This document shows, in pieces, positions 121 to 48,220 of a stretch of DNA of 64,000 nucleotides. Made by a program: the position numbers and the translations under genes. The notes below the pieces were generated by a model. It did no database searches and was not told where the DNA came from. It saw only the letters and a list, made by a program, of their open reading frames with translations. Position 1 is the first letter of the stretch. Every line of letters begins with the position of its first letter. The stretch is from Clostridiaceae bacterium (lineage in GTDB: Bacteria; Bacillota; Clostridia; Peptostreptococcales; Peptostreptococcaceae): positions 1-64,000 of the forward strand of contig CABIVQ010000004.1 of the NCBI GenBank assembly GCA_902362365.1. Reading direction: 5' to 3'.

Positions 121-513
121 TTAACTTAATTTTTTAGATTTCTTACTTCTTTCTTTATGTCTTTTTTCCCAGAAATCTGCATTTTGAATACCTAAAGCTT
201 TAGGATCAAATACTAAATCTTCTCTAGTAATACCAGCTTTTCTCTGTGTTTCATAATTTTTAAGACAAGCCAGAGCAGGTTTTGTCATAAAGAATAAAGC
301 AATAATATTTATCCAAGCAGTTATTCCAACAACTATATCTCCCATTGTCCATGCAAGCACTGCTTTTTTTATGCATCCAAAGTATACAGTGGATATCATA
401 GCAACAAATGATTTACTAAATCTAGGTATAAAAGAATCTATAGCTAATTGCGTAAATGATGCATCATACTTAACACCTGGTAATAATAATCCCATTGCTA
501 TTAAAGTAGCAAA
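121..513 (-). pseudogene. Truncated sodium:alanine symporter (AgcS family), C-terminal fragment
   Basis: Only about the last 130 residues of an AgcS-type sodium:amino-acid symporter remain; intact members are usually 450-490 residues. The reading frame contains FATLIAMGLLLPG, then the last membrane segments (GDIVVGITAWINIIALFF) and a lysine-rich cytoplasmic tail. Reading upstream in the same frame, a TAG (514-516) comes just before FATLIA and the rest of the gene is absent; glpQ ends six bases further on. An internal ATG at 495 could start a 124-residue peptide, but it has no ribosome site. This is a deletion relic. Positions 1-120 after it hold no gene I can see. Confidence 0.85.
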
Positions 514-519
514 CTAAGA

Positions 520-1266
520 TTAAATCTGATGTTTTTCTTCATCTAAGATTTCTAACATTAATTCTGGATAATCACTAAATACGGCATCTACACCGCAGTT
601 AATCATTTTTCTCATTTGTGAAGGTGAATTAATTGTATAAACATAAACCTTTAAATTATTTTTATGAGCTAAGTTTACCATTTCTTTAGTCACTAACTCT
701 TTACTTATGTTTATACTATACACATTCAATTTTTTAGCATGGTCAACAACATTTTTTTCGGGTGCATAATCTTTTTCATATTCATAAAGAGCACCGTATT
801 TGTAATCAGAATCAATATTCTTAAATATATTTAAACATTTGTGATTAAAGCTAGAAATAAGAACATTATTTCTCAGATTATATTTGTCGACTAAATTAAG
901 TACATCTTGTTCTAAATCATAATGAATCTGATCTGTTTTGGCTTCTATGTTTAAAGTAATGTTTTTATCTTTAATAAGCTCAAAAACATCCTCTAAAGTA
1001 GGAACTTTGCATAAATCATTGTCAATAAATTCAAATTTTCTACATTTTAAGTTTTGTAACTCTTCTAAAGTATAGTCTTTAACTAGACCTTTTCCTTTAA
1101 AAGTACGTTGTACATCTTCATCATGTATAACGATTAGTTTACCATCTTTACTTTTGTGAACATCAAGCTCAATACCGTCAATAGGTAAGGTAAGTGCTTT
1201 TTCAAAAGATAAGATAGTATTTTCTGGGTAATCTCCACTTGCGCCCCTATGTGCAAATACTTTCAT
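520..1266 (-). CDS. glpQ: Glycerophosphodiester phosphodiesterase
   Basis: This 248-residue protein hydrolyses glycerophosphodiesters to glycerol-3-phosphate and an alcohol. The GDPD signature is complete: HRGASGDYPENT at residues 6-17, then ELDVHKSKDG with the metal-binding Glu/Asp and the second His, and a C-terminal VYVYTINSP...GVDAVFSDYP block typical of the TIM barrel end. It has no signal peptide, so it is probably cytoplasmic. The start has a good ribosome site (AAGAGGTG). It lies divergent to the glycerol-3-phosphate dehydrogenase operon about 0.8 kb away, and its product is that operon's substrate. Confidence 0.93.
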   Translation of the reverse strand: MKVFAHRGASGDYPENTILSFEKALTLPIDGIELDVHKSKDGKLIVIHDEDVQRTFKGKGLVKDYTLEELQNLKCRKFEFIDNDLCKVPTLEDVFELIKDKNITLNIEAKTDQIHYDLEQDVLNLVDKYNLRNNVLISSFNHKCLNIFKNIDSDYKYGALYEYEKDYAPEKNVVDHAKKLNVYSINISKELVTKEMVNLAHKNNLKVYVYTINSPSQMRKMINCGVDAVFSDYPELMLEILDEEKHQI

Positions 1267-1331
1267 ACAACACCTCTTATTTTAGTTTAGTTTTATAACA
1301 GAGACTTACAAAAAAATAAGAGAGGCAATAT

Positions 1332-1364
1332 AAATAAAGACTATATTTAAGATAGTCTTTATTT
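1332..1364. repeat. Perfect 13-bp inverted repeat upstream of glpQ
   Basis: AAATAAAGACTAT and its exact reverse complement are separated by 7 bases. It lies between the glpQ start and the mgtC relic. A T-rich run follows on the minus strand, so it may be a weak terminator or an operator; the sequence does not decide. Confidence 0.6.
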
Positions 1365-1506
1365 AAAAGCTCTCCCTTTATCTCCGCTATACATATAAAA
1401 TTCAACATATTTAGTATAAAATAAGAAATTTTTTCTGTCAATGGCGTATGAAATAATTTTACTCAGAATTTACATTAAGTATAAAAAGCATCAATAGGAG
1501 GAATTC

Positions 1507-1886
1507 ATGGGAGAAAGAGAAATTTTTTTAGATTACTACTAGCATTAATTGCTGGAGGAGTAACAGGTATAGAAAGAGAATGATTAAATAAGTTTGCAGG
1601 ATTTAGAACACATATATTAGTATCTTTAGGGGCTTGTATATCATCAATTATTTCTTTATAATTATTTTTGCAATATAATGGGGTCGCAAATTTAGATCCA
1701 GCAAAGTTATAGGCACAAGTATTATCAAGTATAGGTTTTTTAGGAACAGGTACGATTCTCAAGACATCTAGTGGAGTCAAGAGGTTAACTACTGCAGCTA
1801 GTATATGGTCAACTGTATGTATAGGTATTACAATTGGTTATGGATATTATTTTCTCGCTATTGTTTCATCTATAAAATCTATTTGA
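1507..1886 (+). pseudogene. MgtC/SapB family protein, degenerate
   Basis: Reading in frame after an early shift gives LLLALIAGGVTGIERE, then FAGFRTHILVSLGAC, SSIGFLGTGTIL and VKRLTTAASIWSTVCIGI, the conserved order of the MgtC/SapB membrane family (magnesium-related, virulence-associated). A good ribosome site (AGGAGG) and ATG remain at 1507. The T7 run near 1525 puts the start out of frame; adding one T restores EIFFRLLLA. Three nonsense codons follow: TGA at a position where the family has Trp (GIEREW), a TAA and a TAG. The gene is dead. The rest of 1267-2097 holds only the inverted repeat and the glp promoter and leader. Confidence 0.85.
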
Positions 1887-6290: not shown

Positions 6291-6588
6291 ATGGAAATAA
6301 AGAATGATGGCATGATTGGTAATTTACTTAAAGATATTAATGAGGTAATTCCTAAGCCTGATGATTCAGCTCTTAAAATTTGTAAGTTAATTAAACGTTC
6401 TGGAGATGTCGTTGGATATGAATTGTCTAATTCTAAAAATTAGCAAATATTAAGGTATAAAGATGGCTAAGAACGGTAAAATTGTGGGAGTTACTGTAGC
6501 TACAAATAAAGGAAACGAGTATTTAAGAAGTTTGACTGATGATAGTGAGGGTAATAACCTAAGTAATCTTCCATCAATAACAGATTAG
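6291..6588 (+). pseudogene. DUF3892 domain protein, frameshifted
   Basis: A 50-codon ORF (6291-6443) with a very good ribosome site (AGGAGGTG) ends GDVVGYELSNSKN. A second frame from 6463 reads MAKNGKIVGVTVATNKG, then EYLRS and NNLSNLP, the conserved end of DUF3892 proteins. Shifting by one base in the A5 run near 6437 joins them as KISKY-stop-GIKMAKNG, where the stop (TAA) probably replaced GAA. One frameshift plus one nonsense codon therefore split the gene. The function of DUF3892 is unknown. The remaining sequence to 6782 shows only a ribosome site for the next gene. Confidence 0.75.
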
Positions 6589-31997: not shown

Positions 31998-32010
31998 GAT
32001 AAAATAAATA

Positions 32011-33577: not shown

Positions 33578-33613
33578 AAAAAAGATGAGCTAATTATAGG
33601 TCATCTTTTTTAT
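33578..33613 (+). terminator. Intrinsic terminator after the MATE gene
   Basis: AAAAAAGATGA and TCATCTTTTTT pair, with an extra CT/AG step inside the loop, ending in T. Confidence 0.82.
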
Positions 33614-33647
33614 TATACATTATAGATGAACTAAAACTAAAAAAAAG

Positions 33648-33676
33648 TTGTTATCGTTCGGATTATCTTGTATAAT
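33648..33676 (+). promoter_or_regulatory. purB promoter with a PurBox-like core in the spacer
   Basis: TTGTTA (33648-33653) and perfect TATAAT (33671-33676) have a 17-base spacer. The spacer contains CGTTCGG, whose reverse complement CCGAACG holds the CCGAAC core of the Bacillus PurR operator. Purine repression is plausible; only one copy is visible. Confidence 0.5.
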
Positions 33677-33716
33677 TAGAATGTAAAAAAAAGACTTAAG
33701 GACGGTGCTAATAATT

Positions 33717-35159
33717 ATGATAGATAACAAATATACTACATATACAAATCCATTAACAGACAGATATTGTAGCAAGGATATGAGTTATATATTTTCTCCA
33801 CAATTTAAATTCTCAACATGGAGAAAGTTATGGGTTGCTCTTGCAGAAGGTGAGCATGAATTAGGGATAAATATAACAGAAGAGCAATTAGAAGAATTAA
33901 GAGCAAACGTAGATAATATAAATTTTGAAGAAGCGAGAAAGATAGAAAAAGAAGTAAGACATGACGTAATGAGTCACGTTAAAGCATATGGAATGCAATG
34001 CGAGAAAGCTAAAGGAATAATACATTTAGGTGCAACATCAGCTTATGTAGGAGATAATACAGATGTAATTCAGATGACAGAAGCTTTAAAACTAATAAGA
34101 ATTAAGCTTGTAAATTTAATAAATAACTTAAAAGAATTTTCATTAAAATATAAAGATATGCCTGCACTTGGATTTACTCACTTCCAAGCAGCACAACTTA
34201 CAACAGTAGGTAAAAGAGCTACTTTATGGGCACAAGATTTATTAATAGATTTAGAAGATTTAAACTTCAGAATAGAAAACATGAAGCTTAGAGGTGTAAA
34301 AGGAACTACAGGTACACAAGCTAGTTTCTTAAGTTTATTTGAAGGTGATCATGAGAAGGTTAAAGAGTTAGATAAACTTATTTGCAAGAAGATGGGATAC
34401 CAAGCTTCATATGCAGTAAGTGGACAAACTTACACTAGAAAATTAGACTATCAAGTGATAAGCATATTAAGTGGAATAGCTCAAAGTATGCACAAAATGA
34501 CTAATGACATAAGACTTTTACAAAGCTTAAAAGAGTTAGAAGAGCCATTTGAAAAAAATCAAATAGGTTCATCAGCAATGGCTTATAAGAGAAATCCAAT
34601 GAGAAGCGAAAGAATAGCTTCATTATCAAAATATATAATAAGTGAAAGTTTAAGTCCAGCTTTAGTAGAAGCTACTCAATGGTTAGAAAGAACTTTAGAT
34701 GATTCTGCAAATAAAAGATTAGCAATACCACAAGCATTTATGGCTGCAGATGCAATACTTGAAATAGGAATAAATGTAACTGATGGATTAGTTGTTTATG
34801 AAAATATGATATCTAAGCGTATAAATGAAGAACTTCCTTTTATGGCTACAGAAAATATACTTATGGAAGCTGTAAAAAGAGGTGGAGATAGACAGGAACT
34901 ACATGAAGTAATAAGAGAATTATCTATGAAAGCAGCTTATAGAGTTAAGCACGAAGGAAAAGATAACAATCTTATAGAGCTTATAATAGAAAGCGATGCA
35001 TTTAATATGGATAAAGAAGAAATACTATCTATAATGGATCCCAAAAACTTCGTAGGAAGAGCTCCAGAGCAAGTTGTAGACTTTGTTAATGAATTTTTAG
35101 ATCCTGCTATAGAACCATTTAAAGATAGTATAGGAATAGATGTAGATCTACACGTATAA
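33717..35159 (+). CDS. purB: Adenylosuccinate lyase
   Basis: The 480-residue enzyme cleaves adenylosuccinate and SAICAR in purine synthesis. The fumarase/aspartase signature GSSAMAYKRNP is present, with HLGATSAYVGDNTD and TLDDSANKRLAIPQAF elsewhere in the active site. The long N-terminal start (SPQFKFSTWRKLWVALAEGE) is of the eukaryote-like clostridial type. ATG at 33717 (MIDNKY) is chosen; a GTG at 33705 lies too close to AAGGA. No other pur gene is nearby. Confidence 0.95.
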   Translation: MIDNKYTTYTNPLTDRYCSKDMSYIFSPQFKFSTWRKLWVALAEGEHELGINITEEQLEELRANVDNINFEEARKIEKEVRHDVMSHVKAYGMQCEKAKGIIHLGATSAYVGDNTDVIQMTEALKLIRIKLVNLINNLKEFSLKYKDMPALGFTHFQAAQLTTVGKRATLWAQDLLIDLEDLNFRIENMKLRGVKGTTGTQASFLSLFEGDHEKVKELDKLICKKMGYQASYAVSGQTYTRKLDYQVISILSGIAQSMHKMTNDIRLLQSLKELEEPFEKNQIGSSAMAYKRNPMRSERIASLSKYIISESLSPALVEATQWLERTLDDSANKRLAIPQAFMAADAILEIGINVTDGLVVYENMISKRINEELPFMATENILMEAVKRGGDRQELHEVIRELSMKAAYRVKHEGKDNNLIELIIESDAFNMDKEEILSIMDPKNFVGRAPEQVVDFVNEFLDPAIEPFKDSIGIDVDLHV

Positions 35160-35172
35160 AATAATATTTAAT

Positions 35173-35208
35173 AAAAAGATGCCTAGAAAAATAGGCATCT
35201 TTTTTATT
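35173..35208 (+). terminator. Intrinsic terminator after purB
   Basis: AAAAAGATGCCTA and TAGGCATCTTTTT are perfectly paired (13 bp, 6-base loop), followed by T. Confidence 0.92.
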
Positions 35209-35312
35209 CTTAAAGACACAACGATGTTGTGGCGGTTTTTATATTAAATGTATAATTATATAAATACAGTAAGTATGAAATTTTATAATAAAAAACAAAA
35301 TGTACCTATTAT

Positions 35313-35366
35313 GACACAGAAATGACACAATAAAGACACAATTAGCACTAATTTAGTTCATATAAT
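35313..35366 (+). promoter_or_regulatory. Three helically phased GACACA repeats before the btuF-like promoter
   Basis: GACACA occurs at 35313, 35324 and 35335, each exactly 11 bases apart (TGACACA in the first two). A TATAAT lies at 35361-35366 with no recognisable -35 box; the last repeat occupies roughly that position. This layout suggests an activator bound on one face of the helix. A fourth GACACA starts a CACAACGATGTTGTG dyad at 35215. No B12 riboswitch core was found in the leader. Confidence 0.5.
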
Positions 35367-35456
35367 GTAATTAGATAAAAATGTAGTATAAAACATAGCA
35401 AAATATGTATTAAAGTTCTGACTAAACATAGTAAGAATGAAAATAGGAGGTATCAA

Positions 35457-36362
35457 ATGAAGAAATTATTAATATTATTAACTACTTTATCGATGTTCAT
35501 TTTATCTGGATGCAGTAATGAAAGTGATAGAACTGTAACGGATAGAGAGGGATCTAAGGTAAATATACCAACAAAGATAGAAAAAATAATATCAACTGCA
35601 CCATCTAATACAGAGGTTATAATGGAGCTTGGATTAGGTAATAAATTAGTAGCAATAGACAAATATTCTACTGATATACAAGGGGTAAATCAAGAAATAC
35701 CTCAAATAGACTTCTCAAACCCAGATGCAGAAACAATAATCGGGTTAGAGCCAGATATAGTTATAGCATCTGGACATAATAAAACAGGTTCAGCAGAAGA
35801 TCCATTTAAGGCAATCAGTGAAGCTGGAATACCAGTAGTTTACATACCAAGTAGTGAGAGTATAGAAGGTATATATGAAGATATTAACTTTATTGCTGAC
35901 GTAGTAAATGAAAAAGAAAAAGGGCAAAAAATAATAGATGATATGAAATCTAAAGTAAATGAAATAAAAGCGATAGGTGATAAAATAGAAGAAGAAAAAA
36001 CTGTGTATTTTGAAATATCACCTGCTCCATATCTTTATAGTTTCGGGAATTCTACTTTCTTGAATGAAATGATAGAAATAATAGGTGCTAAAAATATATT
36101 TGCAGGAGAAGAAGGATGGTTATCTCCAACAGAGGAATCTGTAATAAATGCAAATCCAGATGTAATAATAACTAATGCATCGTACCTTGAAAATCCAACT
36201 GAAGAAATAAAATCTCGTGAGGCATGGGATAATATAACTGCAATAAAAGAAAATGCAGTATATTTAGTAGATAAAAATGCATCTTCTCGTCCATCTCAAA
36301 ATGCAATAAAAGCTTTAACTGAAATGGCTAAAGCTATATACCCAGAGCATTATGGACAATAA
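35457..36362 (+). CDS. btuF: ABC transporter substrate-binding lipoprotein, BtuF-like
   Basis: This 301-residue lipoprotein has a signal ending LSGC (C19) and a single BtuF/FhuD-type periplasmic-binding domain (TVTDREGSKVNIP, IISTAPSNTEVIMELGLG, GLEPDIVIASG). The Glu residues that dock to the permease are at ELG and in the C lobe. Corrinoid is the likeliest ligand by resemblance, but iron-siderophore cannot be excluded. It is the first gene of a three-gene ABC operon, overlaps the permease gene by 11 bases and has an AGGAGG ribosome site. Confidence 0.82.
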   Translation: MKKLLILLTTLSMFILSGCSNESDRTVTDREGSKVNIPTKIEKIISTAPSNTEVIMELGLGNKLVAIDKYSTDIQGVNQEIPQIDFSNPDAETIIGLEPDIVIASGHNKTGSAEDPFKAISEAGIPVVYIPSSESIEGIYEDINFIADVVNEKEKGQKIIDDMKSKVNEIKAIGDKIEEEKTVYFEISPAPYLYSFGNSTFLNEMIEIIGAKNIFAGEEGWLSPTEESVINANPDVIITNASYLENPTEEIKSREAWDNITAIKENAVYLVDKNASSRPSQNAIKALTEMAKAIYPEHYGQ

Positions 36363-37368
36363 AAAAAAGGCAGCATTAAGTATTTTACTAGCATTAATAA
36401 TTATTGGTATTGGAACTTCCGCAGGGAGTTCCAATATTAATTTAATCGAAACTATATCAATACTAGTAAATAAAATATTTTTTATCCCTCTTAAAGAGGG
36501 AATAGACCCCAAAAATATAGGCATTGTTTGGAAGTTAAGATTACCTAGAGTGTTGCTTGCATTTTTAGTTGGAGGATGCTTAGCAACTAGTGGGGCGATA
36601 GTACAGTCTGTATTGAAAAATCAGCTTGCATCACCTTATACATTAGGAGTGTCTTCTGGTGCATCGTTAGGTGCGGGCTTAATAATTATAAGTGATATTG
36701 TTATTCCTATAGTTGGGAGTTTTACGCTTCCTTTAGTTGGATTTTTATTTGGATTAGGAACAGTGTATATTGTAATAACTTTTTCTGCTAAAATAGATAG
36801 AACTATGTCTAACAATACAATTATATTATCGGGAATGGTATTTTCATTATTTGTAAATGCATTGCTTACGACATTGACAGCATTATTTTCAGAGGATATG
36901 AAAAGTATAGCTCTTTGGCAGATGGGTAGTTTCGCTATGAAAGGTTGGACCTATGTTAAGCTAATTATTCCATTTGCAATAATAGGAGTGATTGGAGTCA
37001 TGAGATTTACTAGAGAAATGGACATAATAACCTTTGGAGAAGAACAAGCAAAAGCAGTAGGCGTTGAAACTTCAAGGGTAAAAACAAAGCTTTTTGTTTA
37101 TGCGGCAGTGCTTACAGGTGGTGCAATATCGTTAAGCGGAACTATTGGATTTATAGATTTAATTGCGCCGCATGCAGTAAGAAAAGTATTTGGTTCAAAG
37201 CATAAATATGTTATACCAATGTCATTTATTTTTGGAGGTTGTTTAATGGTTATATCTGATTTAATAGCTAGAACTATAATTGTACCTTCAGAACTTCCAG
37301 TAGGGGCTGTAACCGCGTTAATAGGAGCACCATTCTTTGCATATGTATATTTTAGAAAGAAAAGGTGA
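36352..37368 (+). CDS. btuC: FecCD/BtuC family ABC permease
   Basis: The 338-residue protein has about ten helices and FecCD motifs: KLRLPRVLLAFLVGGCLATSGAIVQ, LGVSSGASLGAGL, LSGTIGFIDLIAPHAVR (the coupling loop to the ATPase) and the final LPVGAVTALIGAPFFAYV. It imports corrinoid or an iron chelate with its neighbours. The start overlaps the binding-protein gene and the stop overlaps the alternative start of the ATPase gene, consistent with translational coupling. Confidence 0.87.
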   Translation: MDNKKKAALSILLALIIIGIGTSAGSSNINLIETISILVNKIFFIPLKEGIDPKNIGIVWKLRLPRVLLAFLVGGCLATSGAIVQSVLKNQLASPYTLGVSSGASLGAGLIIISDIVIPIVGSFTLPLVGFLFGLGTVYIVITFSAKIDRTMSNNTIILSGMVFSLFVNALLTTLTALFSEDMKSIALWQMGSFAMKGWTYVKLIIPFAIIGVIGVMRFTREMDIITFGEEQAKAVGVETSRVKTKLFVYAAVLTGGAISLSGTIGFIDLIAPHAVRKVFGSKHKYVIPMSFIFGGCLMVISDLIARTIIVPSELPVGAVTALIGAPFFAYVYFRKKR

Positions 37369-37373
37369 TATAT

Positions 37374-38138
37374 ATGTTAGAAATAAAAAATCTTTCTAGT
37401 GGCTATGATGGAGTAGATATAATAAAGAATATAAGTTTAAGTATAAGAAGTGGTGAAAATTTATTTGTAATAGGGCCTAATGGCTGTGGTAAAAGTACGC
37501 TATTAAAAACTATAGCAAATATTATTGAATACAAAGGTAGCATAAAGATCGATGATAAGGAAATTTCATCTCTAAATAGAAAAGAATTAGCTAAGAAAGT
37601 TGGCTTAATGAGCCAAGTTTCAGAAATATATTTTCCATATACAGTATATGAAACAGTGTCACTAGGAAGGTATCCATATTCAAAAGGAATTTTTGATACT
37701 TTATCTAAAGAGGATAAAAATATTATTTTAGAAAATATATCAAAGGTGGGATTGACGGAATTTAAGGATAAGATGATAACTGAGTTGTCAGGTGGTCAAG
37801 TACAAAGAGTTTTTCTAGCAAAATTATTTGCCCAAAATCCAGATATAATACTTTTAGATGAACCTACTAATCATCTTGATCTTAAATATCAAATTGAATT
37901 GTTAGAGTATGTAAGCCATTGGGCTAAATCAAAGAATAAGATTGTAATAGGAGTATTACATGATTTAAACTTAGTTCACCATTTTGCTGATTCTGTGATA
38001 ATGTTACAAAATGGAGAAATAATTTCTAGTGGAAATCCTAAGAATGTACTAAATGGAGAAAAACTAAAAGAAGTTTATGATATTGATATAAAAAGTTTTA
38101 TGGTAAATGTATTAAATAAATGGGAAGACGTTATTTAG
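37374..38138 (+). CDS. btuD: ABC transporter ATPase, BtuD/FecE-like
   Basis: The 254-residue ATPase has Walker A GPNGCGKST, Q-loop (MSQVSEI), signature LSGGQVQR, Walker B IILLDEPTNHLD and the switch His (VLHDLN). ATG at 37374 has AAAGGTGAT at proper distance, so it is preferred to a GTG at 37365. It is the third gene of the BtuFCD-like operon. After it, 38139-38323 holds no terminator I would call with confidence. Confidence 0.9.
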   Translation: MLEIKNLSSGYDGVDIIKNISLSIRSGENLFVIGPNGCGKSTLLKTIANIIEYKGSIKIDDKEISSLNRKELAKKVGLMSQVSEIYFPYTVYETVSLGRYPYSKGIFDTLSKEDKNIILENISKVGLTEFKDKMITELSGGQVQRVFLAKLFAQNPDIILLDEPTNHLDLKYQIELLEYVSHWAKSKNKIVIGVLHDLNLVHHFADSVIMLQNGEIISSGNPKNVLNGEKLKEVYDIDIKSFMVNVLNKWEDVI

Positions 38139-38323
38139 TAGATTGTAAAGATTTCGTATAATTATTATCTAAATAGTTTGAAGCTATATAATTTATAAGT
38201 GTAAAGATATGGATATTTAGAATAAAACACTTTAAAAGTGATTAGAATATTAAAATTAAAAAATATGAATCAAAAGGTTATTTCCTGCAAATAGTAAGCC
38301 TATAAAACTAAGGAGGGAGACTA

Positions 38324-39838
38324 ATGTCAGGAAATAACAGTAATACTAAGAAATTAACATTACTATCGTTAATCTTAATGATATTTACTTCAGTTTTTGG
38401 ATTTGCTAATATACCAAGAGCATTTTATTTAATGGGATATGCAGCAATACCATGGTATCTATTAAGTGCAATTTTGTTTTTTATTCCTTATGCGTTTATG
38501 ATGGCGGAGTATGGAGCTTCATATCAAAATGAAACTGGTGGAATATATTCATGGATGGAAAAATCAGTAGGTGCGAAGTATGCTTTTATAACTACTTTTA
38601 TGTGGTATGCATCTTATATTGTTTGGATGGTAAATGTATCTTCTTCTATATGGATACCTTTATCTAATGCTATATTTGGATATGATAAAACCGCAGAATG
38701 GTCAATATTAGGATTAAACTCAACGCAAAGTTTAGGGATACTAGCTGTAATTTGGATTATAATTGTAACATATATATCAACAAAAGGAGTAGAGCAAATT
38801 ACTAAGATAACATCAGTTGGTGGTTCTGCTATAGCCTTACTAAATATAGTTTTATTAATAGGAGGAATAACTGTATTAGCTTTAAATAAAGGAAGTCTTG
38901 CACAGCCAATAAAAGATATGGCTAAAAGCTTTACGAATTCACCAAATCCAGCATACCAAACAACCATAAGTATATTTTCCTTTTTAACTTTTGCAATTTT
39001 TGCTTATGGTGGACTTGAAGCTTTAGGTGGTCTTGTTGATCAAACTGAAAATGCTGAAAAGACTTTTCCAAAAGGTTTAAGTATAGCTGCTATAGTTATA
39101 GCAGTTGGATATTCTATAGGAATATTTGCTTGTGGATTATTTACAAATTGGAATACAGTTTTATCGATAGAAGGTGTTCATATGGGCAATGTGGCGTATA
39201 TTTTAATGCAAAATTTAGGTTTTGAACTAGGTATAGCATTTGGTATATCACCACAAAATGCACTAACAGTAGGATTATGGGTGGCAAGATTTACAGGATT
39301 ATCAATGTTTCTTGCATTAAGTGGAGCTTTCTTTACATTAACATATTCTCCTTTAAAAACTTTAATACAAGGTTCACCAAAGGAAGTATGGCCAGGTAAT
39401 CTTGCTAAAATTGATGATGGAATTCCTTTAACAGCTATGAAAGTACAAGCAATTATAGTTATTGTATTAATATTACTTATTTCATTTGGTGGAAAAGGTG
39501 CTGCAGAGTTTTTCTCGCTTTTAGTAGCAATGACTAATGTAGCAATGACTATACCATATGTATTTTTAGCGGCAGCATTCCCTGCATTCAAGAAAAAACA
39601 ATTAAAAGGACAAGTTTCACAACCTTTTGTAGTTTATAAAACGTATACAGTTTCATTAGTAGCTACTATTATCGTAAGCTCGGTTGTTACTTTTGCAAAT
39701 ATATTTTCAATAATAGAACCAGCTTTATCTGGGCAAACAATAGATACAGTAATGATGATAGGAGGACCGTTGATTTTCTCATTAATAGCATTTTTACTTT
39801 ATAATAGTTATGAAAAAACTATAAATATAGATAAATAA
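38324..39838 (+). CDS. yjeM: APC-family amino acid permease, YjeM-like
   Basis: This 504-residue, 12-helix permease resembles E. coli YjeM and the GadC group throughout, notably LILMIFTSVFGFANIPRAFYLMGYAAIPWY, MMAEYGASYQNETGGIYSWM and FAYGGLEALGGLVDQTENAEKTFPKG. The substrate is probably an amino acid or GABA-type antiport pair, not established. No decarboxylase is adjacent. AGGAGGG ribosome site. A MarR gene follows, after a terminator. Confidence 0.87.
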   Translation: MSGNNSNTKKLTLLSLILMIFTSVFGFANIPRAFYLMGYAAIPWYLLSAILFFIPYAFMMAEYGASYQNETGGIYSWMEKSVGAKYAFITTFMWYASYIVWMVNVSSSIWIPLSNAIFGYDKTAEWSILGLNSTQSLGILAVIWIIIVTYISTKGVEQITKITSVGGSAIALLNIVLLIGGITVLALNKGSLAQPIKDMAKSFTNSPNPAYQTTISIFSFLTFAIFAYGGLEALGGLVDQTENAEKTFPKGLSIAAIVIAVGYSIGIFACGLFTNWNTVLSIEGVHMGNVAYILMQNLGFELGIAFGISPQNALTVGLWVARFTGLSMFLALSGAFFTLTYSPLKTLIQGSPKEVWPGNLAKIDDGIPLTAMKVQAIIVIVLILLISFGGKGAAEFFSLLVAMTNVAMTIPYVFLAAAFPAFKKKQLKGQVSQPFVVYKTYTVSLVATIIVSSVVTFANIFSIIEPALSGQTIDTVMMIGGPLIFSLIAFLLYNSYEKTINIDK

Positions 39839-39854
39839 ATATCAAAAATAGCGT

Positions 39855-39905
39855 AAAATAAAGAACTTATTAGAATTGAATTTTTATGAGTTCTTTATTT
39901 TTGTG
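39855..39905 (+). terminator. Intrinsic terminator after yjeM
   Basis: AAAATAAAGAACT and AGTTCTTTATTTT pair perfectly over 13 bp with a 21-base loop and a T run. Confidence 0.85.
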
Positions 39906-40031
39906 TAAAAATGTACAATATAAACGAACATTAGGAATAATTTCCTCAAAAACTATTGTATTTTAAATAATTTTAATGTAAACTATTAAATGTTAAAAAG
40001 TTAATAAACTAAACATCTGGGGTGATATATT

Positions 40032-40484
40032 ATGAAAGGTATAGTATCAAACACAATAGGATTTATCTCGAAAACGTTTCCGGCGCTTTATTCTAGTTTT
40101 TATTTAGACTATTTAAAGCAATATTCTAGTGCTTATGATGTAAATAAAACGCAGCTTAGAGCATTAGTTTTTGTTAGCAACAATGGTCCAATAAGTATGA
40201 CAGATTTATGCGCTAAGTTAAACATCGAAAAGGGGAGCTTAACAAGTATGGTAGACGATTTAACTGACAAGGGATATGTTGTTAGAGAAAAGGATACTGC
40301 TGATAGAAGGAAATATTTAATAACTATAACTGAAAGTGGTAGCAATGTTGCTGCTGACTTCATGGGGAAATTAAGTAACAGTCTTGAGGAAAAGCTTTTT
40401 AAGTTGAGTGAAGAAGAACAAGATAAGTATATGGAAGCAATAGGAACATTACAAGCAATTCTAAATAAAGAAGAATTAAGCTAA
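40032..40484 (+). CDS. MarR family transcriptional regulator
   Basis: The 150-residue winged-helix protein has the recognition helix region PISMTDLCAKLNIEKGSLTSMVDDLTDKGYV and the wing REKDTADRRKYLITIT with the usual D-x-R-D/A-RR pattern. The flanking helices provide the dimer interface. It lies between the yjeM-like permease and a convergent aminotransferase gene, so it may control the permease; there is no direct evidence. Start after GGGGTGATA. Confidence 0.9.
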   Translation: MKGIVSNTIGFISKTFPALYSSFYLDYLKQYSSAYDVNKTQLRALVFVSNNGPISMTDLCAKLNIEKGSLTSMVDDLTDKGYVVREKDTADRRKYLITITESGSNVAADFMGKLSNSLEEKLFKLSEEEQDKYMEAIGTLQAILNKEELS

Positions 40485-40668
40485 AAATTAAAAAGTGAAA
40501 TTTAGCAATTAAAGAGCTGAAGTATAAATATAATTTTGATTTAATATTGTTAAGAAAATACTTAGAATATGAATAACTTTATGTTTATACTTTTCGCTCC
40601 TTAATTACCAAAACTTAAATATTTTAGGGATTCTTTTTTATTTGTAGTATATATACCTTTTTATTTTA

Positions 40669-41904
40669 TTAACTTAGTGGTAATTCATCATTTTTGTAGT
40701 TAAAACTTTTTATTTTTAATGATAGGTATTCTTTTAATCCTTCTTTTAAAAGTTTAGCTGCTGTTGTCAGATCTTTTTCATTTAGTATGTAGGCAAGTCG
40801 AATTTCGTTTTTACCTAGTTTTTCTGATGAATAGAATCCTTGGGCTGGGCATATCATGACGGTTTCTTTGTTTTTATTAAATTCTTTTAGCATCCAAATA
40901 GCAAAGTCTTCTGCATCGTCAACAGGCAATTTAGCTAATATATAAAATGCTCCAGACGGTTTTTCGCATACTACTCCATCGACTTTCATTAATTCGTAAT
41001 ATAATACATTTCTTCTTTTTTCATATTCTTCTATTATTTCTTTAAAGTAGGATATTGGAGTTTCATATAATTTTGCTGCTCCAACTTGGTCCAAAGTTGA
41101 AACACATAATCTACCTTGACATAATTTTAATATTTGATCAATTAATCCTTTATTTTTAGAAGCAATCGATCCAATCCTAGCTCCGCATGCACTGTATCTT
41201 TTAGATATGCTATCAATTATTATAACTCTATCTTCTATTTCTGGAATATTTCCAAAGCTAGTATACTCTTGATTATCATATACAAACTCCCTATATACTT
41301 CATCCGATATTATCCATAAGTTATATTCTAAAGCAATTTCGGACAACATTCTTATTTCATTGTATGAATAGACTGTGCCAGTTGGATTACTAGGATTAGA
41401 AATCATTATTGCTTTAGTTTTAGGATTTATTTTAGAGATTATATCTTCCTTACTTGGAAGATGAAATCCATTCTCTGCTTTAGTTGTTATAGGATTTATT
41501 TTAACGTTTACAGATTGACCAAATCCGAAATAGTTAGTGTAAAATGGCTCGGGAACTAGCACATTATCATCAGGGTCACACACAGCCATTAAAGCAAATA
41601 ATAAGGCTTCGCTACCACCGTTAGTTACTAATAACTCATCTTTACTAAACTTCATTTTATAAGAACTGTAATATTTTTGCATGGAATTGATCAAATCTTC
41701 CGTCCCATTAGATGGACAATACTCTAATACTTTCTTATCAAAATTTTTAACTGCCCTAAAAAATTCTTCAGGTGTTTTTATATCCGGCTGTCCTATGTTT
41801 AAATGATATACTTTAATCCCTCTTTTTTTTGCTGACTCTTCAAAAGGTGCAAGTTTCCTTATAGGAGATGACTGAATAGAGTTTACCCTTTGTGAATACT
41901 TCAT
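40669..41904 (-). CDS. PLP-dependent class I/II aminotransferase
   Basis: This 411-residue fold-type I enzyme has the PLP lysine in SISKRYSACGARIGS, a cofactor-binding NPSNPTGT, SDEVYREFVY and a final NEIRLAYIL for the substrate carboxylate Arg. It resembles aspartate or aromatic aminotransferases of Clostridia; the substrate cannot be fixed. GGGGG ribosome site on the minus strand. It stands alone, convergent with the MarR gene and divergent to the galT-like gene. Confidence 0.9.
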   Translation of the reverse strand: MKYSQRVNSIQSSPIRKLAPFEESAKKRGIKVYHLNIGQPDIKTPEEFFRAVKNFDKKVLEYCPSNGTEDLINSMQKYYSSYKMKFSKDELLVTNGGSEALLFALMAVCDPDDNVLVPEPFYTNYFGFGQSVNVKINPITTKAENGFHLPSKEDIISKINPKTKAIMISNPSNPTGTVYSYNEIRMLSEIALEYNLWIISDEVYREFVYDNQEYTSFGNIPEIEDRVIIIDSISKRYSACGARIGSIASKNKGLIDQILKLCQGRLCVSTLDQVGAAKLYETPISYFKEIIEEYEKRRNVLYYELMKVDGVVCEKPSGAFYILAKLPVDDAEDFAIWMLKEFNKNKETVMICPAQGFYSSEKLGKNEIRLAYILNEKDLTTAAKLLKEGLKEYLSLKIKSFNYKNDELPLS

Positions 41905-42146
41905 TGTAAATCCCCCTTTAATTAAATAAATTTATACTTAAGACTAATAGTATCAGAAATAACTAGGGAAATCATTAGAAAGTAGTTATATACTATATAT
42001 AGTTATAAGTGAGGAATTTATAACATTCATCATAAACTACTATGTATATATAAATATTTCAATGAAAATCAATTATGATATTTATGATAGAATAAAAATC
42101 ACTTATAATAAAGTAATAAGCTATTATAATCTAAGAGGTGTTAATT

Positions 42147-43103
42147 ATGAGAGAACTAAGGAGAGATCCTATTACTAATGATATAGTTGTGCTTGCAAAA
42201 AATAGATCGAAGAGGCCTATGGATAAAGTTAGATTTCAATGTGATAAAGAGGTAAAAGAAGAGTATAAAGAAGACTGCCCATTTTGTAGAGGAAATGAAA
42301 AACATACGGAGAGTCCTACTTTTGAAATTAAAGGTAAAGATGGATGGTTAGTTAGATCTGTATATAATAAATATCCAATAGTGGATTCTTTATCGGAAGA
42401 AATTTATGGGGAACATGAGGTTATGATTGATACTAATAGACATGATGGAAGTTTTTATAATATGAGTGAGAATGAATTCTTGTATTTACTAAAAATGTAT
42501 AAACATAGGTATGAGCATATGTCAAAAAATGAAAAAGTAAAATATATTAGTATTTTTAAAAACTTTTTAAGAGGAGCTGGAGCATCACTACTTCATCCTC
42601 ATTCACAAATAATTTCTTTATCTATAGTTCCTCCAGAAATTGAAAATGAAATTAACATTTCTGAAAAATATTATAATAAATATAAAAAATCATTATATGA
42701 AGCTATTATAGAAGATGAGGTAAAGTATGGGCATAGAATTATACATAATCATAGAGATTACTTAGTAATAGTTCCGGAAATTACAAAGTATGGAGGTGAA
42801 ATTAGAGTTTTATTCAAAAGTAATAAAAGGTTTGAAGAACTAAAAGAAAGAGATTTAGAAGAATTAGCTAAGATATTTAGAAATTTATTTAAAAAAATTT
42901 ATAATGTACAAGGTTATAATCCATTTAATATATGCATACATACTCATCCCTTAAATACTCCTAAGAGTAAAAATTCTCATTTTCATACTCACATACATAT
43001 AATACCTAGAAAATACAGTTTTGGAGGATTTGAGCTCGGAACAGATGTATATGTATCATCTATAAATGCTGATAAGTTAGCTAAAAGATTAAGATTTGAT
43101 TAA
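42147..43103 (+). CDS. galT: Galactose-1-phosphate uridylyltransferase-like (HIT superfamily)
   Basis: The 318-residue protein has the GalT start MRELRRDPITNDIVVLA, a zinc-type CPFCRGNE, LLHPHSQI (residues ~150) and a second HIT block SHFHTHIHIIPRK. Canonical GalT uses an HPH nucleophile, seen here as HPHSQ. It is slightly shorter than E. coli GalT (348) and has no galK or galE beside it, so a related nucleotidyl transfer is possible. ATG at 42147 after AGAGGTG is preferred to a GTG at 42138. Confidence 0.8.
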   Translation: MRELRRDPITNDIVVLAKNRSKRPMDKVRFQCDKEVKEEYKEDCPFCRGNEKHTESPTFEIKGKDGWLVRSVYNKYPIVDSLSEEIYGEHEVMIDTNRHDGSFYNMSENEFLYLLKMYKHRYEHMSKNEKVKYISIFKNFLRGAGASLLHPHSQIISLSIVPPEIENEINISEKYYNKYKKSLYEAIIEDEVKYGHRIIHNHRDYLVIVPEITKYGGEIRVLFKSNKRFEELKERDLEELAKIFRNLFKKIYNVQGYNPFNICIHTHPLNTPKSKNSHFHTHIHIIPRKYSFGGFELGTDVYVSSINADKLAKRLRFD

Positions 43104-43111
43104 AATAAACG

Positions 43112-43152
43112 AAACCTAGAGTGTATAATACTGTTACGTTATAGGTTTTTAT
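43112..43152 (+). terminator. Probable terminator after the galT-like gene
   Basis: AAACCTA and TAGGTTT flank a 23-base loop and are followed by TTATT. The stem is short. Confidence 0.55.
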
Positions 43153-43322
43153 TATATTATAGGTATTTATTGAAATTGAAAAAAGAATTGATTATAAGCT
43201 TAATAATGAGGGTATTTTAAATAATATAAAGTAAAAATAAAAGCTATTTTACATAAATTTATATTATTTAGAATTCATTATGATAAAATAAAAAAACATG
43301 CAGAAAAACTTAGGAGGTACAA

Positions 43323-44075
43323 ATGAAATTTATATCTTGGAATGTTAACGGACTTAGAGCTTGTGTAACCAAAGGATTTTTAGACTTTTTTAAAGAAGTC
43401 GATGCGGATATTTTCTGTTTACAAGAAACTAAACTTCAAGAAGGTCAAATAGATTTAGAATTAGAAGGATACCATCAATATTGGAATTATGCTCAAAAAA
43501 AGGGATATTCAGGTACTGCAATATTTACAAAAATAGAGCCTATAAGTTCAACTTACGGTATTGGAATTGAAGAACATGATAATGAGGGGAGAGTTATAAC
43601 TTTAGAATTTGAAGATTTTTATTTTGTAACAGTTTACACTCCAAACTCTCAAAGTGAATTAAAGAGATTAGAGTATAGAATGAAATGGGAAGATGATTTT
43701 AGAGAATACTTATTAAAGTTAGATAGTAAAAAGCCTGTTATAATGTGTGGTGACTTAAATGTTGCACATAAGGAAATAGATTTAAAAAATTCAAAAACTA
43801 ATAGAAAAAATGCTGGATTTACTGATGAAGAAAGAGGTAAATTTACTGATTTCTTAGCTTCTGGTTTCATTGATACTTACAGATTCTTTAATCCAGATAA
43901 AACAGATATTTATTCTTGGTGGTCATATAGATTTAAGGCTAGGGAAAAGAATGCAGGTTGGAGAATTGACTACTTCTGTGCATCTAAAAAAATAGAGGAT
44001 AGATTAATTAGTGCTGATATACATACGGAAATACTGGGATCAGATCACTGTCCAGTAGAGCTAGTTATAAAATAA
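43323..44075 (+). CDS. exoA: Exodeoxyribonuclease III / AP endonuclease
   Basis: The 250-residue EEP-fold nuclease carries all motifs of the ExoA/APE1 type: [14 protein letters not shown] with the metal Glu, [27 protein letters not shown] and the catalytic GSDHCPV. It cleaves at abasic sites in base-excision repair. Length is normal. TTAGGAGG ribosome site. It is monocistronic. Confidence 0.95.
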
Positions 44076-44102
44076 CTAAGAATTATAATGATATAAATTC
44101 AA

Positions 44103-44135
44103 AGAAGGATTCCTTAAAAAGGAGTCTTTTTTTGT
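44103..44135 (+). terminator. Intrinsic terminator after exoA
   Basis: AAGGATTCCTT and AAGGAGTCTTT pair with two wobble or mismatch positions, followed by seven T. Confidence 0.82.
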
Positions 44136-44249
44136 ATTATTAATATATTAGATAATTATATTAATATGTAATAAATATAAATTTATAATCATAAAATTTA
44201 TTGAGACCAAACTATGTAAATAATTATATATTTTTAGGAGGATAGATAA

Positions 44250-44576
44250 ATGAATTTATTAGACTTAAAAAGTAAATTGGAAAAAGGTAAGCTTTTAGAG
44301 GGAGAAGTAGTATACATAAAAGAAGATAATATTATATCTGGAATAGATTCTGTATATAAAAATCAAGAAGATAAAAGTATTGTTTTGTTAAAATCAAAGG
44401 AAGAAACTATAAAGGTAGATAATCTTTTAGGAATATTAAATGAAATATATGCTACTGTTGGAGATATAGAAGTTTTTATTTCTGAAAACTCTACAAATAG
44501 AAGTTGCACTAAGAATATAGAATCAGTGGAATTTGCACAGTATGAACTTGTGAAAATGATTTTTATAAATATATAA
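44250..44576 (+). CDS. Hypothetical soluble protein
   Basis: The 108-residue protein (MNLLDLKSKLEKGKLLEGEVVYIKED...) has a mixed alpha/beta prediction, two cysteines or fewer and no signal. No family is recognised. It has a strong TTTAGGAGG ribosome site and a perfect terminator follows, so it is a genuine gene. Confidence 0.68.
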   Translation: MNLLDLKSKLEKGKLLEGEVVYIKEDNIISGIDSVYKNQEDKSIVLLKSKEETIKVDNLLGILNEIYATVGDIEVFISENSTNRSCTKNIESVEFAQYELVKMIFINI

Positions 44577-44591
44577 AATTATATGTTTAGT

Positions 44592-44640
44592 AAAGAAACT
44601 ATTTTTAAATAAATATTATATTTAAAGATAGTTTCTTTTT
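44592..44640 (+). terminator. Intrinsic terminator
   Basis: AAAGAAACTATTTTTAAATA (44592-44611) pairs with TATTTAAAGATAGTTTCTTT (44619-44638) with one mismatch, then T. Confidence 0.88.
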
Positions 44641-44667
44641 ATCTAATAAATACTTACTATAGATATA

Positions 44668-44976
44668 TTATTTACAGCAGAATGTTTCACAGCTGGCATT
44701 ACCAGAATTTATTTTTACACTTGGTGCAGTACAACTTTCATTTTCGTTATATTTGCAGTTGCCAGCTTTACAATCTATATTTGATGTTTTTACACAATCA
44801 CATTCATCTGCAGAATTTGTGAATCCACAAGTACTTTGATCTCTAAATGTAGAACAACAAGTATTTGAAGTTGTAGTAGCTTGTCTTCCATCGACCTTTA
44901 TACTTCCAGAATAACACTCACCTGAAGTATTGTATACACAGTTTGTAGCTGAACAACCTAAATTAGTATTAGCCAT
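44668..44976 (-). CDS. DUF1540 cysteine-rich protein (two modules)
   Basis: The 102-residue protein has two copies of the DUF1540 pattern: C8-x4-C (LGCSATNCVYN) with CYSGSIKV and a CCSTF end, and then IDCKAGNCKYNENESCTAPSVKI with CETFCCK. The cysteines probably bind a metal or form disulfides. DUF1540 proteins are common in spore-formers and of unknown function. An AGGAGGTA ribosome site just before ATG at 44976 decides the start; an ORF extension upstream is not used. Confidence 0.88.
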   Translation of the reverse strand: MANTNLGCSATNCVYNTSGECYSGSIKVDGRQATTTSNTCCSTFRDQSTCGFTNSADECDCVKTSNIDCKAGNCKYNENESCTAPSVKINSGNASCETFCCK

Positions 44977-45200
44977 AAAATACCTCCTAAACATAATATA
45001 CAATTAGTATGTGAAAGAAAAAGAAACTTATTCATGTAAAGATTGTAGCTTAGCATAAAAGATATATTTTATAAAACTATATCATTATATTTACTAATAT
45101 GTTAAAATTAGCTAGTACTAACAAATGAGATAAATAAAATAATAAAAAGTCTTTAAAAGATTTTCAATATATTTTAAATATGTGATATATAAATTATAAT

Positions 45201-45226
45201 AAAAAAGACCTTATGGTCTTTTTTTA
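45201..45226 (+). terminator. Orphan intrinsic terminator upstream of the VanY-like gene
   Basis: AAAAAAGACC and GGTCTTTTTTT form a clean stem-loop with T tail. The only ORF upstream on this strand ends before 44668. It may close a small RNA in 45030-45200 or be a leader attenuator for the gene starting at 45272. No other signal is visible in this stretch. Confidence 0.75.
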
Positions 45227-45271
45227 GGTATAAAGTGACAACTTAACATAACAACTTAATTGGGGGAAAAT

Positions 45272-45973
45272 ATGAAGAAAAGAATTATAGTTTTAGCTAT
45301 TTCGAGTTTATTTATTATTGGATCAGCATTTATTGTAACTAAAAAAGATAATATTAAAGCACAGAACAATACTTCTAATATGAGCAAAAATAATTACAAA
45401 AATGATGGTAATCTTTCTGCTAGTAAAGAATACATAGAAGGAGTACAACCATTGTATATAGATGGTATAGTAGTAGTGAATAAAAAATATGGACTACCAC
45501 AAGATTATAGAGCACCAGAAGAGTTAGAAAAAGATGCAATAGATGCTGCTAAAAGAATGATGAAATCTGCCGAAGAAGATGGAGTAGTAATAAAAATAAG
45601 AAGTGGATATAGATCTTACAGTATTCAGTCTACTTTATATAATAATTATGTTAGACGAGATGGAAAAGAAGCAGCTGATAAATATTCAGCAGTGCCGGGT
45701 TACAGTGAACATCAAACTGGTTTAGCATTTGATTTTACAACAAGCGATACGATAACATCTATAGGAGATTGGTTCACAGATACAATACAAGCTAAATGGT
45801 TATATGAAAATGCCTATAAGTACGGCTTTATTATTAGATATCCAGAGGGGAAAGAAGATATTACTGGATACCAATACGAGTCTTGGCATTATAGATATAT
45901 AGGTGAAGAACATAGCATACATTTCGCAATGAATAATTTAACATTAGAAGAATATTTAGGTTTAGATAAATAA
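45272..45973 (+). CDS. VanY-like D-alanyl-D-alanine carboxypeptidase (peptidase M15B)
   Basis: This 233-residue protein has a signal-anchor (KKRIIVLAISSLFIIGSAFIV) and a zinc peptidase domain with SGYRSYSIQ, SEHQTGLAFDF (zinc His and Asp) and a catalytic Glu/His in ESWHYRYIG. It trims the terminal D-Ala of peptidoglycan stem peptides. The GGGGG ribosome site fits ATG at 45272 rather than a TTG at 45260. No van cluster is present, so it is a housekeeping type. Confidence 0.9.
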   Translation: MKKRIIVLAISSLFIIGSAFIVTKKDNIKAQNNTSNMSKNNYKNDGNLSASKEYIEGVQPLYIDGIVVVNKKYGLPQDYRAPEELEKDAIDAAKRMMKSAEEDGVVIKIRSGYRSYSIQSTLYNNYVRRDGKEAADKYSAVPGYSEHQTGLAFDFTTSDTITSIGDWFTDTIQAKWLYENAYKYGFIIRYPEGKEDITGYQYESWHYRYIGEEHSIHFAMNNLTLEEYLGLDK

Positions 45974-45983
45974 TGAGAAACTA

Positions 45984-46228
45984 TTAAAAGGAACTATCAA
46001 GAGCTTTTTGATAGTTTTTTTGAGTTATTAGCTTATTTATTGCTTCTTTAGTTAAAATTAATTTTAAAATATCTTTATTAATAGAATAAAAATTCCATTT
46101 TCCTTTAGGAATTTTAATAATTAAATAAGCAGAAAGAAGCAATTTTAAATGATACGATAGTTTTGATTGAGTTAAATTAAAGATTTCGGTAAGTTCATAG
46201 ACACATATACTTTCTGTTTGGTAAACTA
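45984..46228 (-). pseudogene. ArsR-family regulator, C-terminal fragment
   Basis: The minus strand reads ESICVYELTEIFNLTQSKLSYHLKLL, then LIIKIPKGKWNFYSINKDIL: the recognition helix and wing of an ArsR/SmtB regulator. There is no start codon; a TAA lies just upstream in frame at about 46229, and the first ~25 residues are missing. The 3' end overlaps the terminator of the VanY-like gene. It is a relic that lies divergent from the scrR relic. Confidence 0.75.
45992..46021 (+). terminator. Intrinsic terminator after the VanY-like gene
   Basis: AACTATCAA and TTGATAGTT are perfectly paired with a 7-base loop, followed by T. Confidence 0.87.
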
Positions 46229-46279
46229 TTTATGTTATAATAAATAAAGGTAATAAGAAGCAATTATGAAGTGGTATTT

Positions 46280-47174
46280 ATGAATATTATTGATATAGCT
46301 AAGCTTGCAGGAGTATCTAAATCAACTGTATCTATATATTTAAACGAGCTTATGCAAGCGAGTAAAGTAGAAAAAATACAAGATGTAATTGATAAAACAA
46401 GTTTTGTTCCATCTAATCATGGTAAAAGTTTACACACAAAAAACTAATCTAATTAGGTACAATACTTCCAAAGATAAGCCCAGAAACAATTAGTAAAATT
46501 GTAGATGGGATAAGTCAGGAAATTTCAAAAGAAAATTATAATATTATTCTTAGTAATACTGATCTAAGTATAGAAAAAAATAGAATATTTAAAAATATTT
46601 AGAAATAAAAATGTTGATGGTGTAATTTTTGTAGCTACTATAATAACTGATAAACACTTAGAAATAATTAAACAAATGAAAGTACCTATTGTTATTGTAG
46701 GACAAAAGGTAGAAGGGTATCCTTTTGTATATCATAGTGATTATGAAGCTGACTATGAAATGACAAACTTTTTAATAAGCAATAATCATAAAAATATAGC
46801 ATATATAGGTACTAATGCTGAAGATATATCTGGAGGTATTAATAGGAAAAAAGGGTTTATTAGATGTTTGCAAGATAAGAATTTAAAATTTAATAAAAAT
46901 TTAATAAAAGATGCTAACTTTTCACAAAAAGGTGGATATGAGAGAAAATAATATAAAAATACCAGAGGATATAAGTTTATGTGCTATAGGTGATTCTAAG
47001 TTTTCTAGCCTAATAAATCCAAAACTTACAACTATTCAATATTACTACAAAGAAAGTGGAATAAAAAGTAGTCGTATATTAATTGATATTTTAAGAGGCA
47101 ATTGTAATAAGGAAGATTTGAAATCTATAAAATTAGGATATAACTTTTCAACAAGAGAAAGTGTAAAAGTATAA
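46280..47174 (+). pseudogene. scrR: LacI-family sucrose operon repressor relic (ScrR-like)
   Basis: The start is intact (MNIIDIAKLAGVSKSTVSIYLN, the LacI helix-turn-helix and hinge), then a stop follows KSLHTKN (46446). Later pieces continue in other frames: TILPKISPETISKIVDGISQEI, VDGVIFVATIITDKHLE, ADYEMTNFLISNNHKNIAYIG, and finally IPEDISLCAIGDSKFSSLINP. About 40 residues are missing near 46930. Three or more disabling changes are present. The position before scrB and scrK relics marks it as the sucrose regulator. 47175-47420 holds nothing recognisable. Confidence 0.82.
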
Positions 47175-47421
47175 TAAAAAATATATACCATTATTGAAAA
47201 GGTTTGCAGGATCGAGTATATAATATATAATTTAATTATAGAACCATGTTAAATAATTTAGTTTTTATTTGTAGACTTTCATATTTTAATAACTTAAAAT
47301 GAAAAATTATTTGAATTTAATGTAGTTCATATATAGAATTATTATTATTTAACGGGTCTTTTTAATTATATAAGCAGTAAGTTAGTATTCAGGTTATTAA
47401 AATTATATTTTTAATATATAA

Positions 47422-48220
47422 TGGGGGAATGCCTAGACTTAATAAAATTAAAAGACATAGAAATACAAAAGTTAAATATATTCTTTCAATATCATAACAA
47501 GGTATAAAAGAAGATGATTATAGATATAACAATATATCAAAGTGGATATTTCTTAGGGTATATGGATTTTAAAAAGGGAGAATTTATATTTGACGAATTT
47601 ATAGAACTTGGAAGAGATTTTGATTTTTATACACTTTAAAGTTTTGTTGATAAAAAAGAAGGACTATACTGATAAGATGGATGGGGATTCCAGATATTGA
47701 AAAAGATTACTATGTAAATCCTACGTACAAAAGTGGGTGGATGCATTGACTATACCTAGATAGTTAATACTTGCAAATAATAAATTACATTAACTACCAA
47801 TAAGGGAAATTGAAAACTGAGAAAGAATAAATTAACTAATTATTTAAAAAATATTATAGAATATGATGAGTTAAAAGGTTGTATTTATGGACTAGAAATA
47901 AAGTTTTATTGTGAAGTAGATAATTTTGAATTAAGTTTAAAGCCAGACTGTATTATTAATTATTGTAAAGAATCTAAAGTATTAAGATTAAATCTTGGGA
48001 AAAGTGGGTATGGAAGATATGAAAGAGCTACAAAAATTGAAAAGTTAGAAGATCTACTAATATTTGTAGATACATCAAGTATAGAAGTATTTGTAAACTA
48101 TGGAGAAGAGGTATTTACAAGTTGTATGTACTGTGCTGACTTTGATGATAAGATAAGTATGAAAGGGAATTTAGATGATGTAAAAATAAATTTATATGAG
48201 CTAGGAGAATATAAATATGT
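47422..48220 (+). pseudogene. scrB: Sucrose-6-phosphate hydrolase relic (GH32)
   Basis: The frames contain ECLDLIKLKDIE (the GH32 acid/base ECPD motif), SGYFLGYMDFKKGEFIFDEF, ELGRDFDFYTL, RWMGIPDIEKDYY and NPTYKSGWMH, then the C-terminal beta-sandwich with LLIFVDTSSIEVFVNYGEEVF. The N-terminal part with the WMNDPNG nucleophile and RDP motifs is missing. Stops occur after FYTL, after WMH and elsewhere. It ends directly against the scrK start, as in intact scrB-scrK operons. Confidence 0.87.

What the first reader, a model, noticed from the sequence alone, without database searches (positions are those of the whole stretch)
121..48220. High density of broken genes in one 48-kb stretch
At least eleven recognisable genes are inactivated: agcS fragment, mgtC, DUF3892, AIM24, flavodoxin, GNAT, sufCB, yaaH-like, arsR fragment, scrR and scrB; scrK also has a deletion. 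Damage types differ: one-base homopolymer indels (mgtC T7, DUF3892 A5, flavodoxin GGG), nonsense codons and deletions from ~25 bases to about 1 kb. No insertion sequences are present. This fits a lineage adapting to a narrow niche or passing a bottleneck. Single-base cases could partly be read errors.
Basis: partly seen in the sequence, partly recalled or inferred. Interest (0 to 1): 0.7.

Follow-up and report, generated by a model that had tools for sequence, protein, structure and literature searches.

The report
Decaying accessory genes in a Romboutsia
This stretch of a Romboutsia-like bacterium's chromosome holds about thirteen truly damaged genes, all in variable segments between intact core blocks, so it looks like ordinary step-by-step loss of unneeded genes and not sequencing error.

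Summary
The damage is real. The sucrose PTS permease gene of the operon is missing. Details needed correction: mgtC has three nonsense codons and a lost 3' end, not a homopolymer indel; DUF3892 needs at least two lesions; an IS30-type element end fills bases 1-123, so insertion sequences are not absent.

Damage is not spread evenly over 48 kb. Of 38 genes syntenic with the nearest held genome, 0 are broken; of 31 in non-syntenic segments, 13 are (Fisher p about 5e-6).

Read error is excluded where it mattered: the flavodoxin frameshift and the scrK deletions recur in independent database entries 98-99% identical, while intact flavodoxins exist at 94-98% identity.

Best reading: dispensable genes decaying in place while the core stays under selection, with slow clearance. 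Niche shift or bottleneck is unproven, since the window's own genome is not held. Ordinary in kind. The most useful piece is a sufCB remnant: the four genomes I could name as Romboutsia lack that family.

The parts
1..123 (.). End of an IS30-type insertion sequence; the rest lies left of the window. It abuts the stop of the agcS remnant.
   Evidence: 94% identity over 123 bases to L104 (G058) and L107 (G053); the neighbouring ORFs in L104 carry HTH_38 and rve domains. The name IS30 is recalled from that domain pair.
121..495 (-). agcS remnant: only residues 330-492 of 494, with a 45-residue internal gap
   Evidence: tblastn of the R. weinsteinii-type gene L085:1968-3452; Pfam Na_Ala_symp
1509..1886 (+). 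mgtC remnant: residues 2-123 of 217 with three in-frame stops, C-terminus lost
   Evidence: Pfam MgtC on a stop-free piece
6291..6588 (+). DUF3892 gene, two frames, at least two lesions
   Evidence: reference is DUF3892
15800..16428 (+). AIM24 (TIGR00266) gene, frame broken by a deletion of about 28 bases
17920..18338 (+). Flavodoxin gene, one frameshift after residue 93 of 141
20948..21413 (+). GNAT acetyltransferase remnant in several frames with stops
   Evidence: reference is GNAT
23820..24284 (+). sufC remnant: N-terminal part; similarity falls away after about residue 140 of 255
24263..24919 (+). sufB remnant: first 80-odd of 306 residues lost in the junction with sufC, two further in-frame stops
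25083..25349 (+). yaaH (GPR1/FUN34) remnant: two ends of the gene, middle missing, frames mixed
   Evidence: reference family
45987..46229 (-). arsR-type regulator lacking about its first 27 of 95 residues
46280..47168 (+). scrR remnant: seven in-frame stops, then a frame change with about 31 residues missing
47190..47498 (+). Place where the relatives have scrA (PTS EIIBC) and the front of scrB: about 2.5 kb there, 0.3 kb here
47532..48221 (+). scrB remnant: residues 260-491 of 491, seven or more stops
48217..49074 (+). scrK, open frame of 285 aa with in-frame losses of 33 and 3 residues
15542..25345 (.). Largest non-syntenic segment (the nearest held genome has 2.1 kb of other sequence here)
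44581..49751 (.). Non-syntenic segment with the scr remnants; its flanks lie next to each other in G058, G059 and G052
25345..44581 (.). Backbone block syntenic with G058, no broken gene found
49751..64000 (.). Backbone block syntenic with G058, no broken gene found

Best explanation
The window comes from a Romboutsia-type chromosome in which dispensable genes, lying in segments that vary between species, are being lost one by one. Deletions, nonsense changes and frameshifts pile up in place and the remains are cleared slowly, while the core blocks between them stay intact under selection. Shown: the damage, its confinement to segments without synteny to the nearest held genome, and the presence of some lesions in independent sequences. 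Inferred: relaxed selection on functions no longer needed (a sucrose PTS route, SUF-type Fe-S assembly, a flavodoxin and others). Not shown: what made them dispensable.
For: 13 of 31 genes in non-syntenic segments are damaged against 0 of 38 syntenic genes (counts entered by me; without scrK 12 of 31, p about 2e-5). Independent entries share the flavodoxin frameshift (P0164, P0165) and the scrK losses (P0001), while close intact alleles exist: flavodoxin at 94-98% over the first 89% (P0166-P0171), scrK with 321 aa at about 95% outside the gaps (P0002-P0004), AIM24 at 91% (P0122). Stages differ: AIM24, flavodoxin, arsR and sufC show one lesion, nine genes two or more. pN/pS is like that of intact genes for agcS, mgtC, AIM24 and scrK (0.16-0.25) and highest for scrB (0.57).
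Against: The backbone is defined by conservation in G058, so some association with being intact is built in. Of the 18 other genes in the segments only 7 were matched near full length to a relative; the rest are open frames, some checked by Pfam domain only. pN/pS is a weak clock here: dS is near saturation, and intact VanY, DUF218 and EIIA score 0.38-0.45.
Confidence: 0.68

Rival explanations
1. Genome-wide reductive evolution after a bottleneck or a move into a narrow host niche; the window samples a genome full of pseudogenes.
For: Density well above the 12 pseudogenes annotated in R. ilealis; 9 of 13 damaged genes with two or more lesions against 32 of 378 in Salmonella, where highly degraded pseudogenes were found only in the strains with high genome-wide Ka/Ks.
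Against: 0 of 38 syntenic genes broken; backbone coding density normal. One window cannot stand for a genome.
Confidence: 0.25
2. Recently imported foreign DNA that never became useful and is decaying in insertion hotspots.
For: The segments lack synteny with G058, G059 and G052; the best DNA matches of their genes come from different genomes and places; the same gap in G058 holds a Mutator-type transposase.
Against: Close intact alleles of AIM24, flavodoxin and scrK (91-98%) suggest working genes in near relatives, not junk from afar; agcS-GDPD-mgtC has the same order in G055. No gene showed a much closer match to a distant genus than its neighbours in the searches made.
Confidence: 0.2
3. 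Sequencing or assembly errors in homopolymers.
For: Flavodoxin has a single one-base shift.
Against: The same shifted tail is in P0164 and P0165; scrK losses in P0001; most genes have large deletions or several stops; none of 38 backbone genes is shifted.
Confidence: 0.02
4. The split frames are functional or switchable (phase variation or programmed frameshifting).
For: Flavodoxin exists in broken and intact forms in close sequences.
Against: The tract there is short; the other genes have deletions and several stops that cannot be switched.
Confidence: 0.03

Closest known systems
Pseudogene accumulation as described for Salmonella (Kuo and Ochman 2010, PMC2916853)
   Same: Mix of short deletions, nonsense codons and frameshifts, hitting individual genes between conserved neighbours
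   Different: There 346 of 378 pseudogenes have one lesion and young ones vanish fast; here 9 of 13 have two or more
Romboutsia ilealis CRIB genome (PMC5598433)
   Same: Same genus by inference; low G+C; a sucrose gene cluster with PTS EIIBC, beta-fructofuranosidase and fructokinase is described as upregulated on fructo-oligosaccharides (passages)
   Different: Its cluster works by expression data and only 12 pseudogenes are annotated; here the cluster is in ruins
IS30-type insertion sequences
   Same: Window 1-123 matches the end of such an element in G058 and G053
   Different: Only one end is inside the window; its link to the damage is not shown

Membership tests
Bacterial pseudogenes | Coding region disrupted relative to intact homologues | tested here: met
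   13 of 13 genes compared with a relative; scrK is shortened but open
Bacterial pseudogenes | Disruption is in the organism, not in the reads | tested here: met
   Shown for flavodoxin and scrK, likely for AIM24; not looked up for the other 10
Bacterial pseudogenes | No functional product | not testable with these tools
   No expression or enzyme data
Genome-wide reductive evolution | Raised pseudogene fraction across the genome | not testable with these tools
   No genome held for the window
Genome-wide reductive evolution | Loss reaches conserved core genes | tested here: not met
   0 of 38 syntenic genes broken
IS30-type insertion sequence | HTH_38 plus rve transposase | tested here: met
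   On the G058 copy L104; the transposase itself lies outside the window
IS30-type insertion sequence | Terminal inverted repeats | tested here: met
   Window 84-120 pairs with the other end of the L104 element at 81% over 37 bases

The most novel reading that the evidence does not exclude
The window catches the loss of whole functional modules half-way. The SUF pair sufCB, absent as a family from the four genomes nameable as Romboutsia and from G058, survives here only as a fused ruin, together with a freshly broken flavodoxin and a ruined sucrose operon. Loss would then be module by module and still segregating between strains, so the order of events could be read directly from sister strains.
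Probability: 0.2. Interest if true: 0.5.

Novelty: new member of a known kind. Interest (0 to 1): 0.3.

Why it matters
It gives a well-documented case in a gut-associated genus where gene death is caught at several stages at once, with broken and intact alleles of one gene in nearly identical sequences. That makes the speed and order of loss testable by sequencing sister strains. It also shows how comparing syntenic with non-syntenic genes separates true decay from read error. For the general question of genome reduction it adds an example, not a new principle.

Tried and rejected
Tried without gain: Rfam on the whole window and on 1-600 found nothing, so my first idea that bases 1-123 were rRNA was dropped once the transposase ORFs appeared. 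ARAGORN found no tRNA. DNA search for the GNAT stretch and its neighbour gave only one useful relative. Whole-family DNA searches score only four candidates per genome, so I draw no absence from them. Absence of SufB/D rests on a family search.

Considered and rejected: single-base read errors; programmed frameshifts; T7 indel in mgtC. Considered and left open: whether the remnants are ancestral or old imports (no gene trees were built). Literature: four searches; of the 8 papers I looked into one (PMC5598433, passages by term search); of PMC2916853 I saw the abstract and the Results section. All other titles were seen in listings only. My earlier attempt to file had damaged fields and a count of 10 multi-lesion genes; sufC has one lesion, so the count is 9 of 13.

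L004 and L005 name R. sedimentorum (G004) and R. lituseburensis (G005). G055 as R. weinsteinii, G051 as R. ilealis and G066 as Terrisporobacter glycolicus are inferred from equal contig lengths (170,011, 2,581,778 and 4,039,277).

Full report
Where it comes from. No genome is held for the window. Protein and DNA matches place it in Peptostreptococcaceae, closest to G058 (type III glutamine synthetase 88% identical; next best 78%, including R. lituseburensis). G058 is syntenic through most of the window, at about 76-84% DNA identity in the main blocks and 64% in one. I call it Romboutsia-like.

Is the damage real? I fetched intact homologues from relatives and aligned them to the window. agcS keeps residues 330-492 of 494 with a 45-residue gap. 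mgtC keeps 2-123 of 217 with three in-frame stops. DUF3892 has a frame change and a stop. AIM24 has a deletion of about 28 bases that shifts the frame. Flavodoxin has one frameshift. The GNAT gene is in pieces. sufC and sufB share one junction deletion, and sufB has two further stops. yaaH keeps its two ends. arsR lacks its front. scrR has seven stops and a frame change. scrB keeps its back half with seven or more stops. scrK is open but lacks 33 and 3 residues. In the G055 operon the gene between scrR and scrB is a PTS EIIBC permease; it gave no match in the window. In all, 13 damaged genes and one missing.

mgtC and DUF3892 are not single-base homopolymer cases. Insertion sequences are not absent: bases 1-123 are the end of an element whose G058 copy encodes HTH_38 and rve proteins. 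A BLAST of that element against the window gave no other convincing copy.

Where the damage lies. I split the window by synteny with G058. All 38 complete genes in the syntenic blocks match a relative in a single frame over at least 83% of its length, nearly all over 95% or more. In the remaining segments I counted 31 genes, 13 damaged and 18 not. Fisher's test gives p about 5e-6, or 2e-5 without scrK. Of the 18, seven matched a relative near full length, some others show complete Pfam domains, and the rest are only open frames. Even against those seven alone the contrast with 0 of 38 is plain. A caution: conservation in G058 and being needed go together, so part of this contrast is expected for any genome. 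Coding density tells the same story: 66% in the segments, 87% in the backbone, 82-91% in twenty stretches of relatives. For the largest segment none of 430 overlapping 9.8-kb windows of relatives was as sparse with ORFs of 70 aa or more, and 4 of 430 were with 100 aa or more.

Are they read errors? Three protein searches were allowed. The flavodoxin fragment found P0164 (99%, 105 aa, 15 members) and P0165 (98%), both with the same out-of-frame tail, and intact 146-aa forms P0166-P0171 at 94-98% over the first 89%; I aligned three of these six. ScrK found P0001 (99%, 285 aa) with the same two losses, and 321-aa forms P0002-P0004 about 95% identical outside the gaps. The AIM24 back part found P0121 (98%, 130 aa) starting at the same place, on a contig of only 522 bp, so suggestive, and an intact P0122 at 91% in unclassified Romboutsia. 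The lesions are therefore inherited, and the flavodoxin one is still polymorphic among close sequences. The other ten genes were not looked up this way.

How old? Four genes show one lesion (AIM24, flavodoxin, arsR, sufC), nine show two or more. In Salmonella 32 of 378 had more than one (PMC2916853 Results); the contrast is strong (p about 3e-7), but my method is homology-based and theirs is synteny-based. pN/pS against one relative is like that of intact genes for agcS, mgtC, AIM24 and scrK and highest for scrB, but dS is near saturation and intact VanY, DUF218 and EIIA also score high. So decay is at several stages, the sucrose regulator and hydrolase furthest gone.

The SUF remnant. The window's sufCB is thus a fossil of a pair that its relatives no longer have. 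Whether it is ancestral or an old import was not resolved.

Mechanism and verdict. The most likely process is relaxed selection on unneeded accessory genes, with lesions accumulating in place and slow clearance, while the core remains under selection. Niche change and bottleneck are possible causes but not shown. The R. ilealis chromosome, with 12 annotated pseudogenes, suggests that this density is unusual in the genus, though annotation methods differ. In kind this is ordinary bacterial gene decay; what is uncommon is the clean contrast and the coexistence of broken and intact alleles.

Noticed in passing
window 1-123; L104 895-2029; L107: The same IS30-type element lies next to the tmRNA gene in G058 (tmRNA at L104 501-852); L107 (G053) holds the element with the same neighbouring ORFs.
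   Followed up: partly
L020:684-1940 (G058 1820684-1821940): Where the window has the DUF3892 remnant, G058 has a Mutator-type transposase: the same gap takes different cargo in different species.
   Followed up: partly
L085 versus window 1-5000 and 38500-40500: In G055 the amino-acid permease and MarR genes stand beside agcS-GDPD-mgtC; in the window those two groups are about 37 kb apart, so the order has been rearranged.
   Followed up: no
window 12625-13095: About 470 bases without a recognisable gene where G058 has only about 65 bases between the same neighbours; possibly one more remnant.
   Followed up: no
window 8138-8608, 17299-17769, 21487-22365: Open frames without Pfam match; the last matches a 221-aa protein of G056 at 39%.
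   Followed up: no
G058 1816872-1819697: G058 has a long ORF of P-type-ATPase appearance beside the one it shares with the window; the window lacks it.
   Followed up: no
window 48217-49074: scrK has two in-frame losses and no frameshift, and P0001 shares them; the short protein might still be made.
   Followed up: partly
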